Assembly: GCA_009772895.1 (NCBI GenBank)
Contig: WOUP01000001.1
Coordinates: forward strand, 372,001 to 436,000
Reading direction: 5' to 3'
DNA length: 64,000 nucleotides
From: Puniceicoccaceae bacterium 5H
GTDB taxonomy: Bacteria; Verrucomicrobiota; Verrucomicrobiia; Opitutales; Oceanipulchritudinaceae
Below, in pieces: positions 55,184 to 62,232 of the stretch (position 1 is its first letter; every line of letters starts with the position of its first letter). Both the position numbers and the translations under genes were made by a program. Below the pieces are notes generated by a model that did not search any database, was not told where the DNA came from, and saw only the letters and a list, made by a program, of their open reading frames with translations.

Positions 55184-55228
55184 ATGAGTTAGATGGTCCG
55201 ATGTCCTCTACTCCGACCCGGAGTTCCC

Positions 55229-55750
55229 ATGCTGCGAGATCTGCGTCATCCTGAGAAAGCTCGCCAAGGCTTTACGCTGGTTGAGGTCGCCATAGGCATG
55301 GCGATCTTCTCTATCGTCGCCATGGCGGTGTTGGCGGCTTCGATGCGCGCCTATAAAGATGCGGAAGATACCAACCGCTACCTGGCCGCCCATGCGCTGG
55401 CGATCAGCGTGCTGCAGCAGTTGGCGTCCATGCCCAAGACGCAACACTCCGACGCCGTGCTCATGCCCACGTCGCAAACCTACACGGTTTACGACTCTTC
55501 GGGTCAGGTCATCAACCTGATGATCGATCCGCCGGCGCCCATCACCACCCACCTCTTTTCGACCCTGGCGCAGGGTGAGCGTCACGCCACCGCCCAATTC
55601 GAGGTCACGATCGACCTGGATGTCGCCAAGGTCACCGACTACGACTGCTACCAGATCAACGTGGCCTGCAGTTACGTATCTCCTTCCACCCACCAGACGA
55701 AGACGGTGGAAGTCAGCACCCTCACCCCGAGTGTCGTCGAAGACAACTAA
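55229..55750 (+). CDS. Prepilin-like protein (class III signal, GFTLVE)
   Basis: Residues about 12-32 (RQGFTLVEVAIGMAIFSIV) hold a prepilin peptidase site (Gly then Phe) with the conserved Glu at +5, followed by the hydrophobic N-helix. The 173-residue protein then has a globular C-terminal part with cysteine pair CYQINVAC. It should be cleaved by PilD-type peptidase and enter a type IV pilus or type II secretion pseudopilus. The start at 55229 is preceded by GGAG. Its stop overlaps the start of the next gene. Confidence 0.9.
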   Translation: MLRDLRHPEKARQGFTLVEVAIGMAIFSIVAMAVLAASMRAYKDAEDTNRYLAAHALAISVLQQLASMPKTQHSDAVLMPTSQTYTVYDSSGQVINLMIDPPAPITTHLFSTLAQGERHATAQFEVTIDLDVAKVTDYDCYQINVACSYVSPSTHQTKTVEVSTLTPSVVEDN

Positions 55751-56577
55751 TGATGCGCTCCAGCCGATCTTCCCGCGGTTTTACATTATTGGAAGTGATG
55801 GTGGCCGCCACCATCCTCTTCGTGCTCGTAGGCTGCATTGCCGTCTTCATGCTCGAGGTCACCAAGACCTATTACGGAGCGGTCGCCAAGACCGACTATG
55901 CCGCCAGGGTCCGTGAGCTTTCGCAAGATATTGGCCGAGACATCATCAGCGCCAATGTCTTTGTGGTCTATCCTTCACAGGCAGATGAAGACCACGACTC
56001 CGAAGCGGACGAATGCAGCAATGACGTAGGAGGCCGCTTGCTCGTCCTGGTGCACGCCACCCTGAACATGGACGATACGCTGCCGGCCTATGACCGCATC
56101 GACCGCATCATCGCCTATGCAGTCGATACCACATCTCCCGTGGTCGACGGTGAAGGCAAGACCATCGGCTATCCGCTCTTCCGCTACGAACTGGAGCCAC
56201 CTGCCACCGAAGATTGGATTACAGACGTCGCAGGGTACTACGACAACGTCTACACGCCAGCCGGCGCCGTCAACATGCCGACAGGCATCACCGAGTTTCT
56301 CGACTACGTCGACAAGGTGCTGGATACGACTCCCGAGTACATCCTCACCGTAGCAGGTGAAAACAGTGAGGCAGACGAGGACGGGAGCACGTTCGACGTT
56401 TCTGAATCTTTCCTGATTCGCCGCGGCAAAACCGTCACCCTCACTCTCGGCGTCGTGGCCAGCAACGACAACATCGTCGACTCCGATGGCGACGGCAAAT
56501 ACGAGGCCAAAGCGACCAGCATCGTCACTGCCAACACGCTCAACCTTTCCTTCACTCCCCGGGGAACCTCAGAATGA
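55750..56577 (+). CDS. Prepilin-like protein with larger C-terminal region
   Basis: SSRGFTLLEVMVAATILFVLVGCIAVFML is the prepilin signal and N-terminal helix (cleavage after Gly10, Glu at +5). The 275-residue protein is PulJ/GspJ-like in its early part and then has a region rich in Asp/Glu/Ser (SQADEDHDSEADE, DSDGDGKYEAKA), perhaps calcium-binding. It overlaps both neighbours by 1-4 bases, so it is translated with the preceding prepilin and the following large protein. Confidence 0.88.
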   Translation: MMRSSRSSRGFTLLEVMVAATILFVLVGCIAVFMLEVTKTYYGAVAKTDYAARVRELSQDIGRDIISANVFVVYPSQADEDHDSEADECSNDVGGRLLVLVHATLNMDDTLPAYDRIDRIIAYAVDTTSPVVDGEGKTIGYPLFRYELEPPATEDWITDVAGYYDNVYTPAGAVNMPTGITEFLDYVDKVLDTTPEYILTVAGENSEADEDGSTFDVSESFLIRRGKTVTLTLGVVASNDNIVDSDGDGKYEAKATSIVTANTLNLSFTPRGTSE

Positions 56578-58961
56578 CGAAAAGCCAACTGCTGCAAAAC
56601 CACCGCCGAGGATCCGTCTATGTCCTGATCCTCATCATGTCCGCTGCGTTTGGGATGCTCGTCTATTCGATGCTCTCCCTCCAAAGCAGTGAGCTGAAGA
56701 ACAATTACTCCTATACCCTGCAGAAGCAGGCCCGCCTGGCCAACGAGTCGCTGTTTTTTCTCGTTTGCGAGCAATTGAAGGACATCTACGACAACAACAC
56801 GGCATCGCTTCAGCCCGGCTCTTCCGTTACCATCACCATCCCCAAGGAACAGCTCGAGGCCATGCTTCCCGCCTCACTGCACGCGAGCTTCAAGTATGAG
56901 AGCGATGGGGTCGAAGTCGTCGTAGGCAGTCTTTCCGACTGGACCTTGCGCTTTGTCGGGAGCGACGTCCCCGGCAGCGAAAACAGCCAGTTCTTGAACC
57001 AGAAGCACTCCTACCGCAGCGTGCCGGTTTTGACCAAGGTGACCCTGATCGGTTCCAATGGAGCGAAGGCCGTCAACTGCGCACGCAGCGTGTTTGCGGT
57101 CAAGGCAGCCCCGCTTACTTCCTACGCTATCTTCTACAATCAGCTTTTGGAGTCCTACGCGGGTGGCGATTTCACGGCGGCTGGGCGTGTGCACGTCAAC
57201 GGCGACTTCTCCACTGCCAACAACGCGTCCAACGCCTTCCATTTGTATTTCGACCGGGTGACCGTAACCGGGAAGCACTTCATGGACGACTTTCACGGCA
57301 ATTCCGACTCCCGGATCATCGCCTTTACCAATGGCCTCACCCGCGCCGATGGCTCCCCGTATTTTGTGGCGCTGGAAAACCGCAGCAACAGCAAGAGCAT
57401 CCTGAACAATTTGTACACCGTCAGTGCCTTCAACCCGGGTGCATTCGACTTTGGGGAGCTTCAGGGGAGATCGGAATCGGGCTACCCTTACCGCTCTTGG
57501 ATGGACAACCACTTTTCCGAAGTCGGTGACAGCCATTGGTACGACCTGGCGCTGGAGAACTGGAACGGCTACCTCAAGACGGGTGTTCACGGCGTGCAAA
57601 AAGTCACGGTCCCGGGCATGGAACGGTATGAAGTTCCAGAGGGATCAAGCTTTACGCCCACGAGCGAAGACTACTGGAATACTTCCTACCAGATGATCCA
57701 GCCCGTGCGGGAAGCCGACTCGGAAGACTTCGCGGTAGACAATGCGGACCATGCCGCCAACCTGACCCGCGAACACAACAAATTTGCCTATAACGCCGGA
57801 CTCATCATCGAGGTGGACGGCCATTCGGGCTACGACGGTTATGGCTACGTCGACCTCGATCCCGCTACCGTGTCTTTCAAGGCCTACACTTACAAGCGAG
57901 ATGCCAAAGGAGACGTCGTCTACAATGGCGACGGCACGCCGCAAACCGTAGACGTAGGCGATCCGGTGGCCCTGGGGATTGTAAAACTCAACCGCTACTC
58001 CGAGGACCCCTACGATAACTCCCTCGTCACGAGTGGCATGTATGACAACCGTCGCAGGGAACATGTGAACCTGGTCGAAGTGGATGTCGGCAAGATCAAG
58101 GAGATCGTGGACGACTACAACGATCTGGACAGCACCGAACGCTTCACTCAGGACCCGGTTGGCGGCGACTTGAACAACGGATTCTGGAACGGCAGCGTCT
58201 ACGTACAGTTCCCCTACGCCTCCAAGAGCCGCATCTGGGAGGGTGACGACAAACCGACCCACGATGGCATTCAGCGCTCCGTCGGCAACTATGGACTCTA
58301 TGTGCACAATGGTCAGGAACTCCCCGAACAGGGCCTGACCATCGCAACCAACAACGTCGTCTACCTGTCCGGTCACTATAATGCCGACGGCGATCCCACG
58401 ACCGGCGACATGCAGACGCCGGACGATGCGGACGAACCGCCGGCCGCCATCGCAGCGGATTCCGTCATTCTGCTCAGCTCGGCCTGGGAAAGCGACGAAA
58501 GCTGGCGCTACAGCAAGAAGGGCTACAGCGACCGCAAGGCCGCCGCGACCGAGTATTCCACCGCTCTCATTACGGGCAACGTACCTACCGGTCGCCAGAC
58601 GAGCACGGGCACGAGCAGCAATAGTGGTTCCATCGCCAATTTTCTGCGGTTTTACGAAAGCTGGCAAAACAACAGCAGCCGCATGTGGGACTCCCATTCC
58701 GAAGGGATCGAGGCCCTGGTTCGCGGCTCGATCGTCTGCATGTGGGACAGTGAGGTCGCGGAAGAAAGATGGCCCGGGCACTCGAACGTTTATTACCGCC
58801 CAGCCCGCCTCTTCGGCTACAACAAGCTGTTCGACAGCCGCGTTCCCCCAGGCATTCCGCTGGGCGGCTTCTCCGGACCAGGCTATTTCAGTGAGATCAA
58901 GCAGTCAGAGTGGGATGACGCCGTCGCGGAAGTGCGTCCGACCACTCCCACAGAAGCTTAG
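56574..58961 (+). CDS. Large PilX/GspK-like surface protein A
   Basis: The 795-residue protein starts with RRGSVYVLILIMSAAFGMLVYSMLS (about 11-36), a PilX/GspK-style signal: the basic end, a Gly before the cleavage site and one long membrane helix without the Glu5 of pilins. About 750 residues of predicted extracytoplasmic sequence follow. The motif GRVHVNGDF (about 204-212) is shared with PilX-like proteins. DDYWNTSYQMIQP, NLTREHNK, GMYDNRR, NGSVYVQFPYA and PPGIPLGGFSGPG are shared with its paralogue downstream. The last 20 residues are acidic and Pro/Thr-rich. The function is unknown; minor pseudopilin or adhesin tip is an inference. Confidence 0.8.
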   Translation: MTKSQLLQNHRRGSVYVLILIMSAAFGMLVYSMLSLQSSELKNNYSYTLQKQARLANESLFFLVCEQLKDIYDNNTASLQPGSSVTITIPKEQLEAMLPASLHASFKYESDGVEVVVGSLSDWTLRFVGSDVPGSENSQFLNQKHSYRSVPVLTKVTLIGSNGAKAVNCARSVFAVKAAPLTSYAIFYNQLLESYAGGDFTAAGRVHVNGDFSTANNASNAFHLYFDRVTVTGKHFMDDFHGNSDSRIIAFTNGLTRADGSPYFVALENRSNSKSILNNLYTVSAFNPGAFDFGELQGRSESGYPYRSWMDNHFSEVGDSHWYDLALENWNGYLKTGVHGVQKVTVPGMERYEVPEGSSFTPTSEDYWNTSYQMIQPVREADSEDFAVDNADHAANLTREHNKFAYNAGLIIEVDGHSGYDGYGYVDLDPATVSFKAYTYKRDAKGDVVYNGDGTPQTVDVGDPVALGIVKLNRYSEDPYDNSLVTSGMYDNRRREHVNLVEVDVGKIKEIVDDYNDLDSTERFTQDPVGGDLNNGFWNGSVYVQFPYASKSRIWEGDDKPTHDGIQRSVGNYGLYVHNGQELPEQGLTIATNNVVYLSGHYNADGDPTTGDMQTPDDADEPPAAIAADSVILLSSAWESDESWRYSKKGYSDRKAAATEYSTALITGNVPTGRQTSTGTSSNSGSIANFLRFYESWQNNSSRMWDSHSEGIEALVRGSIVCMWDSEVAEERWPGHSNVYYRPARLFGYNKLFDSRVPPGIPLGGFSGPGYFSEIKQSEWDDAVAEVRPTTPTEA

Positions 58962-58980
58962 CCCCAGCCAGTCACATCCC

Positions 58981-59685
58981 ATGAAGAAGCATTATTTGAA
59001 GGCGACATTGCTCGCCGCGGCCTTGCTTGGGCCAACGTTCGCGCTTCAGGCCCAAACCGCCCGTAACGCACCAGACAAGCAAGCCCAGGTCGAAGCCCCC
59101 TACGCCGACATTTCAGGCTCTCCGATCCTCCTTGGGGCCGATACGGCCAGCTCACGTTTCTACGCTGAAAACGAAACGATCGATGGCTATCGTTTCGACT
59201 ATCTTGCCATTGCCTTTGGCGACTTCGTGCTGCGCTATCAGTATCCCGCCGAAGGCTTCCCCCTGCAGACGGCCTCGGCGGTGCCACCCTTTGCCGCCGT
59301 TTTGCGCCTCCCCAACGTGCCGGATACGTTTGTCGGAGTGGCGTATTTTCGCAGCGCGCCGATGCCAGACCTCAAGGAACCCAGTCAGATGCGCTACCTC
59401 AAAGGGGTGATGGCAACCGCGCCCGAAGGTCAGCATGTCGAGATCCTGAAGGGCCCGGTCGAAGGCAACCGTGGGACCGTACTCTACGGTATGAACACCC
59501 GCGAGTTTGAATACGTCTACGTCGGCAATGAAGACGGTGCAGTTCTGCGTCACGTGCAGGAGTATCTGACCGAGGTAGGTGACGGCAGCTGGATCTTGAG
59601 CCGCTATGAAGGTGCGCCGCGCGCATTCGATCAGATTTCCACCGCCGCCAATCAGTTCCTGACCCAGATGTACCGCAAGCCGTAA
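58981..59685 (+). CDS. Secreted protein of unknown function within the prepilin block
   Basis: A clear signal peptide (MKKHYLKATLLAAALLGPTFALQAQ) heads this 234-residue protein. The mature part begins with a polar stretch and includes YRFDYLAIAFGDFVLRY, PNVPDTFVGVAYFRS and EFEYVYVGNEDGAVLRHVQEYL, so it is likely a soluble beta/alpha domain in the periplasm or outside. I do not recognise it. It starts 19 bases after the large protein A gene, and the unrelated frame upstream of this ATG is not coding. It may work with the two large proteins on either side. Confidence 0.75.
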   Translation: MKKHYLKATLLAAALLGPTFALQAQTARNAPDKQAQVEAPYADISGSPILLGADTASSRFYAENETIDGYRFDYLAIAFGDFVLRYQYPAEGFPLQTASAVPPFAAVLRLPNVPDTFVGVAYFRSAPMPDLKEPSQMRYLKGVMATAPEGQHVEILKGPVEGNRGTVLYGMNTREFEYVYVGNEDGAVLRHVQEYLTEVGDGSWILSRYEGAPRAFDQISTAANQFLTQMYRKP

Positions 59686-59844
59686 AGAGGTATATAACCC
59701 AGGCACCCACCGGAGCGTCCTCATTGGCGCATGCAGTTGTTATGTAGGTGCTTATTAATAGCACTGGATCTTCAACTTCATCATTTACTAACGCGTTCTG
59801 AATAGCTATGCGTAGAGCTAACTTACCACGTATTGCTGTTGACT
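59686..59844. other. Intergenic A/T-richer gap between secreted protein and large protein B
   Basis: These 159 bases are A/T-richer than their surroundings, with several TA-rich stretches (TATATAA, TATTAATAG). A short inverted repeat GTGCT (59748-59752) and AGCAC (59760-59764) with a 7-base loop is present. No T run follows. A promoter for large protein B is plausible, but I cannot point to one. No coding frame is seen. Confidence 0.3.
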
Positions 59845-62232
59845 ATGAAGACGCTTTGCTTCCTGCGCCGCAAGACCGGCTCGATCTATGTCTTGATCCT
59901 GTTCATGTCCGCCGCCTTCGGTCTGCTCGTTTACTCGATGCTGTCGTATCAGAACAGCGAGCTGATGAACAATTATTCTTATACCCTGCAGAAGCAGGCT
60001 CAGCTGGCCAATGAGTCCCTGTTCTTTCTTGCCTGCGAGCAACTGAAAGAGACGTACGACAACAACACCGCCGCACTCCAGCCAGGCTCAACCGTTTCTA
60101 TCGACATACCGGAAGACCAACTCCGGGCCATGCTGCCGCTCGACCTGCACGCCGATTGGGATTTTGAGAACACGGAAGTGCACGTCGGCTCGCTCTCAGA
60201 CTGGACGGAGCGCTATATCGGCTCGGATGTGCCCGGGAGTGAAAACTCACAATTTCTCGACCAGACGTTTTCCTACCGCAGCGTCCCGGTAATGACCAAG
60301 GTGACGCTGACAGGGCCGAAGGGCAGTAAGGCTGTCAGCTACGCCCGCTGCACATTCGGGGTCAAAGCCGCTCCGATCACGTCATTTGCGATCTTCTACA
60401 ATCAGAATCTCGAATCTTACGCCGGTAACGACTTTTTGGTGGACGGACGCGTCCACACCAACGGCGATTTGATCCTCGCGCCCGAAAATGGAGGTGGAAA
60501 GGCTCACATCTACCTCGGTCGGGTATCCTCCGCCGGTCAGATGCGCCTGTTCGACCGGGGGCACAACATGGACAACCCCTTCCCGATCGGCTTCAATACC
60601 GGCCTCGAGGTGAATGGCTCGCCTCAGATCATGGGGTTGAGTCAGTCCTCCATTACGCGCAATCTTCAGGGCAGCAGCTATTACGTCTCGCGATTCGACT
60701 CGGGCGACTACTCATTCTCGGAGCTGCAGAATGGCAGTGCCGATTACGACGGCTACCCCTACCGCGCCTGGATGGACAAGTTTTATTCGGAACAAGACAA
60801 AAACTGGTATCAGCTCGCGCTCGACAACTGGAACGGCATGCTGAAGACCGGTGTGCACGATGTGCAAAAGATCACCATTCCCGGCATGGATCGTTATGAG
60901 ATCCCCACGGTGACGGACCGGCCTTACGAGCAAAACAGCGCGTTCAAATGGGATCCGCAGAGCGACGACTATTGGAACACTTCATACCAGATGATCCAGC
61001 CGCTGCGGTCTGCCGATGACCCTGCCTTTGACAGTACCAATACGGAGGCATCCGCCAACCTGACGCGCGAGCACAACAAGCTTTCATATAATGCCGGCCT
61101 CATCATCGAAATCGATGGCAGCTCCGGCCATGGCTACGATCTGGATCCGTACTCGGTCACGTTCGACGCCTATTACTACAAGCGAAATGCGGCTGGCCAG
61201 GTCCTCTATAATGCCGACGGTACGCCCCAGAAGGTCAGCGTCGGCGACCCGCGACAACTGGGTATCGTCGAGGTGGAACCTTATCAGGAAAACGCCTACG
61301 ACAATAGTCTCGTCGAAACCGGCATGTATGACAACCGGCGAGGCGAGTCCGTCAACTTTGTGAAACTGGATGTCGACCGCCTGCGCGAGCTGGTCGATGA
61401 CTATGACTCTGGGGCCGCCGCCACCGACAAGTTCAGCGAAGACCCGGTAGGAGCGGACCTCGCCAATGGCTGGTGGAACGGCAGCGTCTATGTCCAGTTC
61501 CCCTACGCCGACGATAACCCGCGGCTCAGCGGCAACCATTCAGGTGTAAGCCACGACGGCGTGCAGCCTTCGGTCAAGAACTACGGGCTCTACGTCTACA
61601 ACGGCGAAGAGATTCCGGAGAAGGGCCTCACAGTCTCGACCAACAATGTGATGTATCTCGTGGGCAACTTCAACGCCGACGGCAATCTCAACACCGGCAG
61701 CACGACCGAGCCCGAAGACGCCGGCGAACCCCCGGCAGCCGTTGCCGCCGACGCCGTCATCCTGCTCAGCTCCAACTGGATTCCGGGGCAACTCAACAAG
61801 CTGAGCAAGAAGAACGCGACCGAGCGTAATCCGAAGGCAACGGAATACTCCGCCGCCATCATTGCAGGTAATTCCCCCCTCGGGCGCATTACTTCCTCCG
61901 GCCAACGCGTGGACGACAGTGGCTCCGTCGCGAATTTCATCCGCTTCTACGAGGACTGGAGCGACACCTGGGGCCGGTATCCGGGCACAACGGCCGGTGC
62001 CACCCAGGCCATGATTCGCGGGTCCATCATCTGCCTCTTCGATAGCGAGGTGGCCGAAGAAAAGTGGTCCTACGGCGGCAATCGCTACACCGCCCCGGCC
62101 CGCCTGTGGGGTTACAACTCGCTCTTTGAAAAGCAGACGCCTCCGGGGATTCCGCTCGGCGGGTTTTCCGGCCCCGGCTCTTTCCAGGAAGTCGACCGCG
62201 CCGATTGGGACGAAGCGGTCGCGGCCCTGTAG
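59845..62232 (+). CDS. Large PilX/GspK-like surface protein B, paralogue of A
   Basis: The 795-residue protein resembles A along its whole length: RRKTGSIYVLILFMSAAFGLLVYSMLS at the N-terminus (leader and membrane helix), GSDVPGSENSQFL, SYRSVPVMTKVTL, GRVHTNGDL, DDYWNTSYQMIQP, SANLTREHNK, YDNRRGESVNFVKLDVDRL and PPGIPLGGFSGPG at the C-terminus. The middle (about 210-260 and 370-385) differs, for example the extra NSAFKWDPQ stretch. The duplication is direct, with the secreted protein gene between. The start MKTLCFLRR at 59845 is chosen over a TTG four codons earlier. The function is unknown. Confidence 0.8.
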   Translation: MKTLCFLRRKTGSIYVLILFMSAAFGLLVYSMLSYQNSELMNNYSYTLQKQAQLANESLFFLACEQLKETYDNNTAALQPGSTVSIDIPEDQLRAMLPLDLHADWDFENTEVHVGSLSDWTERYIGSDVPGSENSQFLDQTFSYRSVPVMTKVTLTGPKGSKAVSYARCTFGVKAAPITSFAIFYNQNLESYAGNDFLVDGRVHTNGDLILAPENGGGKAHIYLGRVSSAGQMRLFDRGHNMDNPFPIGFNTGLEVNGSPQIMGLSQSSITRNLQGSSYYVSRFDSGDYSFSELQNGSADYDGYPYRAWMDKFYSEQDKNWYQLALDNWNGMLKTGVHDVQKITIPGMDRYEIPTVTDRPYEQNSAFKWDPQSDDYWNTSYQMIQPLRSADDPAFDSTNTEASANLTREHNKLSYNAGLIIEIDGSSGHGYDLDPYSVTFDAYYYKRNAAGQVLYNADGTPQKVSVGDPRQLGIVEVEPYQENAYDNSLVETGMYDNRRGESVNFVKLDVDRLRELVDDYDSGAAATDKFSEDPVGADLANGWWNGSVYVQFPYADDNPRLSGNHSGVSHDGVQPSVKNYGLYVYNGEEIPEKGLTVSTNNVMYLVGNFNADGNLNTGSTTEPEDAGEPPAAVAADAVILLSSNWIPGQLNKLSKKNATERNPKATEYSAAIIAGNSPLGRITSSGQRVDDSGSVANFIRFYEDWSDTWGRYPGTTAGATQAMIRGSIICLFDSEVAEEKWSYGGNRYTAPARLWGYNSLFEKQTPPGIPLGGFSGPGSFQEVDRADWDEAVAAL

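What the first reader, a model, noticed from the sequence alone, without database searches (positions are those of the whole stretch)
56574..62232. Tandem paralogous 795-residue proteins with PilX/GspK-type N-termini flanking a secreted protein
Both large proteins start with a Gly-containing prepilin-like signal and a membrane helix, but have a C-terminal region of more than 700 residues, far larger than normal minor pilins. They share many blocks (such as DDYWNTSYQMIQP and PPGIPLGGFSGPG) and differ in the middle. The unit (prepilin, prepilin, large A, secreted, large B) looks like a pilus-tip or surface-assembly system that I do not recognise.
Basis: partly seen in the sequence, partly recalled or inferred. 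Interest (0 to 1): 0.65.

Follow-up and report, generated by a model that had tools for sequence, protein, structure and literature searches.

The report
Pilus-tip gene set with giant pilins
These genes most likely build the tip of a type IV pilus, in which a small pilin stalk carries a large ridged (beta-solenoid) domain that probably grips something outside the cell, and the same gene set turns up in several bacterial phyla, including relatives of a cyanobacterial motility protein of unknown role.

Summary
Two intact 795-residue paralogues (58% identical) lie behind two prepilin genes, with a 234-residue secreted protein between them. Both have a prepilin leader and helix without the usual Glu+5, as in PilX and GspK. 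The reading "pilus tip" is supported, and the family is now partly recognisable. An AlphaFold2 model of protein A (pLDDT 84, pTM 0.85) shows a split pilin domain (about 12-180 plus 760-790) interrupted by about 580 residues of beta-rich sequence. The best solved match is Thermus ComZ (Z 10.3), a tip pilin with a beta-solenoid inserted between its last two strands. By sequence, 52 of 55 family members match the model of the cyanobacterial protein HpsA, A and B far below its cut-off; ComZ itself is not detectable by sequence. The order prepilin, prepilin, giant pilin recurs across Verrucomicrobiota, and three-prepilin versions occur on Deinococcota and cyanobacterial plasmids. The secreted protein folds like PsbP/Mog1/DcrB/Eag proteins. 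The genome has a prepilin peptidase, ATPases and secretins, plus a T2SS with its own GspK. Most likely the cassette encodes a GspI-J-K-like tip complex displaying a solenoid receptor. The ligand, and whether it works on T4P or T2SS, are not shown. New variant of a known kind.

The parts
55193..55750 (+). prepilin 1, GspI/PilV-like minor pilin (185 aa), leader R-Q-G|FTLVE
   Evidence: PF07963 E 7.1e-8; TIGR02532 above cut-off, GspI 28 bits below cut-off; paralogue in the second cassette, E 3e-26
55750..56577 (+). prepilin 2, GspJ/HpsC-like minor pilin (275 aa)
   Evidence: PF07963 E 1.6e-6; weak HpsC and Verru_Chthon C matches, both below cut-off; paralogue in the second cassette, E 1e-55
56574..58961 (+). 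large A (795 aa): PilX/GspK-type N-terminus, pilin domain split by a ~580-residue beta-rich (solenoid-like) insert
   Evidence: HpsA model E 1.7e-8, below cut-off; AlphaFold2 pLDDT 84.2, pTM 0.85; ComZ 6qvi Z 10.3
58981..59685 (+). secreted protein (234 aa), signal peptide plus a PsbP/Mog1/DcrB/Eag-fold domain
   Evidence: model pLDDT 85.2; PsbP Foldseek E 1.9e-5; EagT6 Z 10.9, LpqN Z 10.7, DcrB Z 9.3; same family beside many giant pilins
59845..62232 (+). large B (795 aa), paralogue of A
   Evidence: 58% identity to A; HpsA model E 1e-11, below cut-off

Best explanation
The cassette encodes the tip complex of a type IV filament. Shown by sequence: two prepilins, a giant GspK/PilX-type pilin, a secreted partner and a second giant pilin. 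Shown by prediction only: the giant pilin has one pilin domain interrupted before its last beta strand by a large solenoid-like domain, as in ComZ. Inferred: the prepilin peptidase cuts all the pilins after the leader Gly; the GspI-like and GspJ-like pilins and one giant pilin form the first-assembled tip; the platform and ATPase push it out through a secretin; and the solenoid is displayed at the tip as a receptor or adhesin. The secreted PsbP/Mog1-fold protein probably helps in the periplasm or binds the tip. A and B are probably alternative tips, with their binding faces diverging in the first part of the insert.
For: Split pilin fold, with strands 143-180 before the insert and 763-775 after it. 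ComZ is the top solved match, Z 10.3 over 369 residues, with another Thermus competence pilin second. ComZ has its solenoid between the penultimate and last strands and is argued to be a tip pilin next to pilA1-3 (PMC6561018). The gene order is kept: 56 of 60 giant-pilin genes have a prepilin just upstream and 45 have two, against 1 of 94 background genes. Deinococcota and cyanobacterial plasmids carry three prepilins plus the giant pilin. No Glu+5, as in GspK and PilX. PilD, PF00437 ATPases, PilT/PilC, PilQ-like and Amuc_1098-like secretins are present. The T2SS in the genome has its own GspK. In L127 the cassette lies next to a secretin gene.
Against: All structure evidence is prediction. 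The ComZ alignment has rmsd 10.7 A and Foldseek gave no E below 0.001. No sequence relation to ComZ was found, even with a profile of Thermus members. The window cassette lies among heme genes, not pilus genes. The ligand is unknown. The T4P-specific assignment rests on general genome content.
Confidence: 0.66

Rival explanations
1. The giant pilins are outsized GspK-type tips of a type II secretion pseudopilus and push polymer-degrading enzymes out of the periplasm, with the solenoid acting as a substrate or gate domain.
For: I-J-K gene order as in T2SS; 3 of 55 members match the GspK model; a T2SS cluster is present.
Against: That T2SS cluster already carries its own prepilin and GspK genes. 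The insert point is that of ComZ, not of GspK (against PMC6561018). The cassettes lie away from that cluster.
Confidence: 0.17
2. The cassette is a DNA-uptake receptor, the functional counterpart of ComZ-PilA2.
For: ComZ-like architecture; ComZ binds DNA (PMC6561018); ComEC is present in the genome.
Against: ComEC is near universal in the bacterial control genomes. Two to three giant pilins per genome and fast divergence fit varied ligands better than DNA alone. The two ComZ lysines could not be compared, because no sequence alignment to ComZ exists.
Confidence: 0.14
3. Like HpsA, the proteins serve polysaccharide secretion for surface movement or coating.
For: 52 of 55 members match the HpsA model; hpsA-D is a large protein with pseudopilins that may act with T4P in polysaccharide export (PMC6495340).
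Against: Scores of A and B are far below the equivalog cut-off. There are no glycosyltransferase genes beside the window cassette. HpsA's own role is unknown.
Confidence: 0.12

Closest known systems
HpsA with HpsB-D of filamentous cyanobacteria (NCBIfam NF038301)
   Same: Detectable homology in ordered blocks (HpsA 285-337, about 950-1067 and 1333-1397); large protein beside pseudopilin genes.
   Different: About 800 instead of 1503 residues, scores at about a tenth of the cut-off, prepilins before instead of after the large gene (Nostoc order from locus tags), no glycosyltransferase genes nearby.
ComZ of Thermus thermophilus (PDB 6qvi)
   Same: Predicted pilin domain interrupted before its last strand by a large beta domain; gene next to minor pilins; best fold match.
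   Different: No sequence similarity detected; larger insert (about 580 against about 380 residues); DNA binding not tested; extra secreted partner and tandem copy.
GspK/GspI/GspJ tip of type II secretion
   Same: Gene order I-J-K; leader and helix without Glu+5.
   Different: Insert lies at another place and is beta, not alpha; below the GspK model cut-off; the genome has a separate GspK.
Verru_Chthon cassette proteins A-D (NCBIfam)
   Same: Verrucomicrobial cassette of prepilins with one large protein (from memory); prepilins 1 and 2 touch models B and C weakly.
   Different: No giant pilin here matches the large cassette protein A model at E 0.001.
Modular pilins such as S. sanguinis PilB and PilC
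   Same: A functional module grafted on a pilin for display by the filament (PMC8179133).
   Different: There the module follows the pilin; here it is inserted inside it.

Membership tests
type IV pilin (class III signal) | basic leader ending in Gly, then a hydrophobic N-terminal helix | tested here: met
   R-R-G|SVYVLILIMSAAFG in A and K-T-G|SIYVLILFMSAAFG in B; Gly invariant in 55 members; helix 12-74 in the model
type IV pilin (class III signal) | pilin fold, alpha helix plus antiparallel sheet | tested here: met
   predicted only: helix 12-74, strands 143-159, 165-180 and 763-775; competence pilins rank first and second
type IV pilin (class III signal) | cleavage by prepilin peptidase | not testable with these tools
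   the enzyme gene is present; processing needs an experiment
HpsA equivalog (NF038301) | score of at least 400 bits | tested here: not met
   32.6 and 43.3 bits; 0 of 194 phylum genomes over the cut-off
HpsA superfamily (homology) | significant, ordered block matches | tested here: met
   52 of 55 members, best 3.2e-25; block positions
HpsA equivalog (NF038301) | linked hpsE-K glycosyltransferases | tested here: not met
   window neighbours read as heme genes from their sequences
ComZ-type solenoid pilin | large beta-solenoid between the penultimate and last pilin strands | tested here: met
   by predicted model only; ComZ Z 10.3, rmsd 10.7, 369 aligned; insert not folded alone
ComZ-type solenoid pilin | sequence homology to ComZ | tested here: inconclusive
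   no ComZ chain found by profile searches or phmmer
ComZ-type solenoid pilin | DNA binding and role in transformation | not testable with these tools
   needs purified protein and a deletion strain
GspK (NF037980) | score of at least 130 bits | tested here: not met
   neither A nor B matches at E 1; 3 of 55 members match at E 0.001
Verru_Chthon cassette protein A | match to its NCBIfam model | tested here: not met
   no such hit for A or B at E 1 nor for 55 members at E 0.001
PilY1 tip adhesin | PF05567 C-terminal domain | tested here: not met
   no PF05567 hit in A or B or in the genome (no control genome rang, so the genome negative is uncontrolled)
PsbP/Mog1/DcrB/Eag fold (secreted protein) | fold match to solved members | tested here: met
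   Foldseek E 1.9e-5 to PsbP; EagT6 Z 10.9, 125 aligned, rmsd 4.2; no Pfam family

The most novel reading that the evidence does not exclude
The HpsA-related giant proteins of Verrucomicrobiota, Deinococcota and Cyanobacteriota are one ancient superfamily of solenoid tip pilins (including HpsA itself), carried as an exchangeable I-J-K cassette on chromosomes and plasmids. Each cassette equips the same pilus machine with a different tip, so HpsA would act as a tip pilin and not as a biosynthesis enzyme.
Probability: 0.45. Interest if true: 0.66.

Novelty: new variant of a known kind. Interest (0 to 1): 0.5.

Why it matters
It gives a concrete structural hypothesis for a large, widely spread and essentially unannotated protein family. 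It links three things studied apart: ComZ as a tip receptor, HpsA in cyanobacterial motility, and unexplained giant proteins of Verrucomicrobiota. If true, HpsA's role becomes directly testable, and pilus tips would be swappable cassettes, some of them on plasmids.

Tried and rejected
Verru_Chthon cassette: my first idea from memory; the large proteins do not match that model. PilY1-type tip: no PF05567 hit, but the genome negative is uncontrolled. A broken third copy: the apparent TGA at C11 is only the end of an intact 800-codon frame. PDB by sequence: nothing. PHROGs: nothing. Foldseek alone on the large model: no E below 0.001; the ComZ match came from VIA-align 2. Viral contigs: the alignment was too diverse to search. 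Promoter and terminator scans: no better than shuffles. Prepilin 2 against the Thermus oshimai prepilin: only the N-terminus aligns.

Full report
WHAT IS THERE. The unit starts at 55193, before the coordinates given. In order on the + strand: prepilin 1 (55193-55750), prepilin 2 (55750-56577), large A (56574-58961), a secreted protein (58981-59685) and large B (59845-62232). The first three genes overlap by a few bases and the fourth follows after 19, so they are probably one operon; B follows after 159 bases. A and B are each 795 residues and 58% identical over their whole length. They diverge most in one stretch in the first half of the extra domain (38% in alignment columns 240-320). The flanking genes read as hemE and hemN upstream and a protoporphyrinogen oxidase and hemH downstream (names from the sequences, not tested).

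A SECOND COPY AND THE HISTORY. The genome holds a second, intact cassette on contig 11 with the same order: prepilin, prepilin, giant pilin (800 codons), secreted protein. Its prepilins match those of the window at E 3e-26 and 1e-55, its giant pilin is 43-44% identical to A, and its secreted protein is a weak homologue. A genome of the same genus has both cassettes, one in the same heme locus with a single giant pilin. The tree groups A with that protein and puts B outside (support 0.976), so the A/B duplication is probably older than the split, with B lost in the relative, unless gene conversion has blurred the signal.

DISTRIBUTION. A profile of the three proteins finds relatives in 21 of 37 close genomes and 41 of 288 across the phylum. 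The named relatives are mostly Opitutaceae, so the window is a verrucomicrobial genome, probably Opitutales (inference). Of 60 giant-pilin genes with enough upstream sequence, 56 have at least one prepilin in the 2.5 kb before them and 45 have two, against 1 of 94 background genes. Around twenty have a secreted protein of the same or a similar kind behind them; profile comparison joins the window's group with a ten-member group at 98% probability, while some small groups join only through that larger group. In several Opitutaceae-type loci a histidine kinase and a LuxR-type regulator precede the cassette, and in one (L127) a secretin-containing gene cluster lies beside it. Beyond the phylum, Thermus, Deinococcus and Picosynechococcus plasmids carry homologues. 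On a Thermus oshimai plasmid, two plasmids of Deinococcus sp. KNUC1210, a D. wulumuqiensis plasmid and the Picosynechococcus plasmid, three prepilins precede the giant gene; on the small Thermus brockianus plasmid two do. Profile comparison with the 55-member alignment gives 100% probability for the T. brockianus protein, and the three-protein profile of this genome against the plasmid-protein profile gives 99.9%.

WHAT FAMILY. NCBIfam NF038301 (HpsA, 'hormogonium polysaccharide biosynthesis protein') matches A at 1.7e-8 and B at 1e-11, 52 of 55 relatives and the plasmid proteins, with blocks in the same order. The scores of A and B (33 and 43 bits) and all others printed are far below the curated cut-off of 400 bits, so these are relatives, not HpsA. 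HpsA itself is described as a hypothetical membrane protein or of unknown function, encoded with the pseudopilins HpsB-D (PMC6495340; PMC4284469). Pfam gives nothing for A and B and PilX_N for three relatives; GspK touches three relatives.

WHAT FOLD. AlphaFold2 with the 55-member alignment gives A at pLDDT 84.2 and pTM 0.85: a long helix 12-74, a strand pair 143-159/165-180, about 580 residues rich in short strands, then one last strand 763-775 and a helix. Among solved structures VIA-align 2 puts ComZ first (Z 10.3, 369 residues, rmsd 10.7), a second Thermus competence pilin next (Z 5.7), and unrelated chains at 4.5 and below. The high rmsd probably reflects a different angle between the two domains (inference). 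Foldseek alone gave nothing significant, and no sequence search finds ComZ, so common descent with ComZ is open. [quoted passage not shown] The predicted insertion point of A is the same, and prepilin 1 is GspI-like, as PilA2 is.

THE SECRETED PARTNER. Its model (pLDDT 85.2) matches PsbP by Foldseek (E 1.9e-5) and EagT6, LpqN, SciW, PsbP and DcrB by VIA-align 2 (Z 9-11). Eag proteins are chaperones for transmembrane segments (from memory), so a periplasmic or pilin-chaperone role is a possibility, not a result.

MACHINERY. The genome has one prepilin peptidase, nine PF00437 matches, three secretins that classify best as PilQ-like, GspD-like and Amuc_1098-like, a PilT/PilU-family ATPase and a PilC/GspF-type platform protein, and a T2SS cluster with its own GspK. 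Which machine takes these tips is not shown.

MECHANISM. Shown: gene order, paralogy, prepilin features, family membership by profile. Predicted: split pilin domain and secreted fold. Inferred: peptidase cutting, assembly first in the filament, tip display and ligand binding. Lack of Glu+5 in the giant pilins fits a first-position subunit, as in GspK (established knowledge). The ligand is open: DNA as for ComZ, polysaccharide as suggested for Hps, or a surface.

NOVELTY. Modular pilins are known to be widespread (PMC8179133) and ComZ is a precedent, so this is a new variant of a known kind. New here, as far as the library searched shows, is the link between HpsA relatives, the ComZ-like architecture and a conserved tip cassette across three phyla.

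Noticed in passing
window:50696-63684: The pilin unit sits inside a heme-synthesis gene run (hemE- and hemN-like before it, hemG- and hemH-like after it); the congener keeps the same arrangement (L087).
   Followed up: partly
L125:10101-13480, L030:3554-6964, L138:8704-12033, L028:4810-6967: In Opitutaceae-type loci a NarL/LuxR-type response regulator, mostly with a HisKA_3 kinase, directly precedes the cassette, which suggests regulated expression of these pilus tips.
   Followed up: partly
L159:30-2743, L167:2267-5842, L166:1946-7313, L168:1954-6028: Prepilin plus giant-pilin cassettes on plasmids of Thermus, Deinococcus and Picosynechococcus, some next to transposases; possible horizontal spread of pilus tips.
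   Followed up: partly
L093:793-6323, L125:3630-10089, L123:6856-15214: Other genomes also have tandem giant pilins, either directly adjacent (L093) or as two whole cassettes in a row (L123, L125).
   Followed up: no
L170:3890-5823: The giant pilin gene of Deinococcus sp. KNUC1210 plasmid unnamed3 is annotated as two overlapping pieces, so it may be frameshifted or mis-sequenced.
   Followed up: no
L014:7829-10227 (contig 8) and L015:8888-11331 (contig 3): Two further minor-prepilin clusters in the same genome; the contig 3 one belongs to a T2SS operon with GspK, the contig 8 one was not identified.
   Followed up: partly
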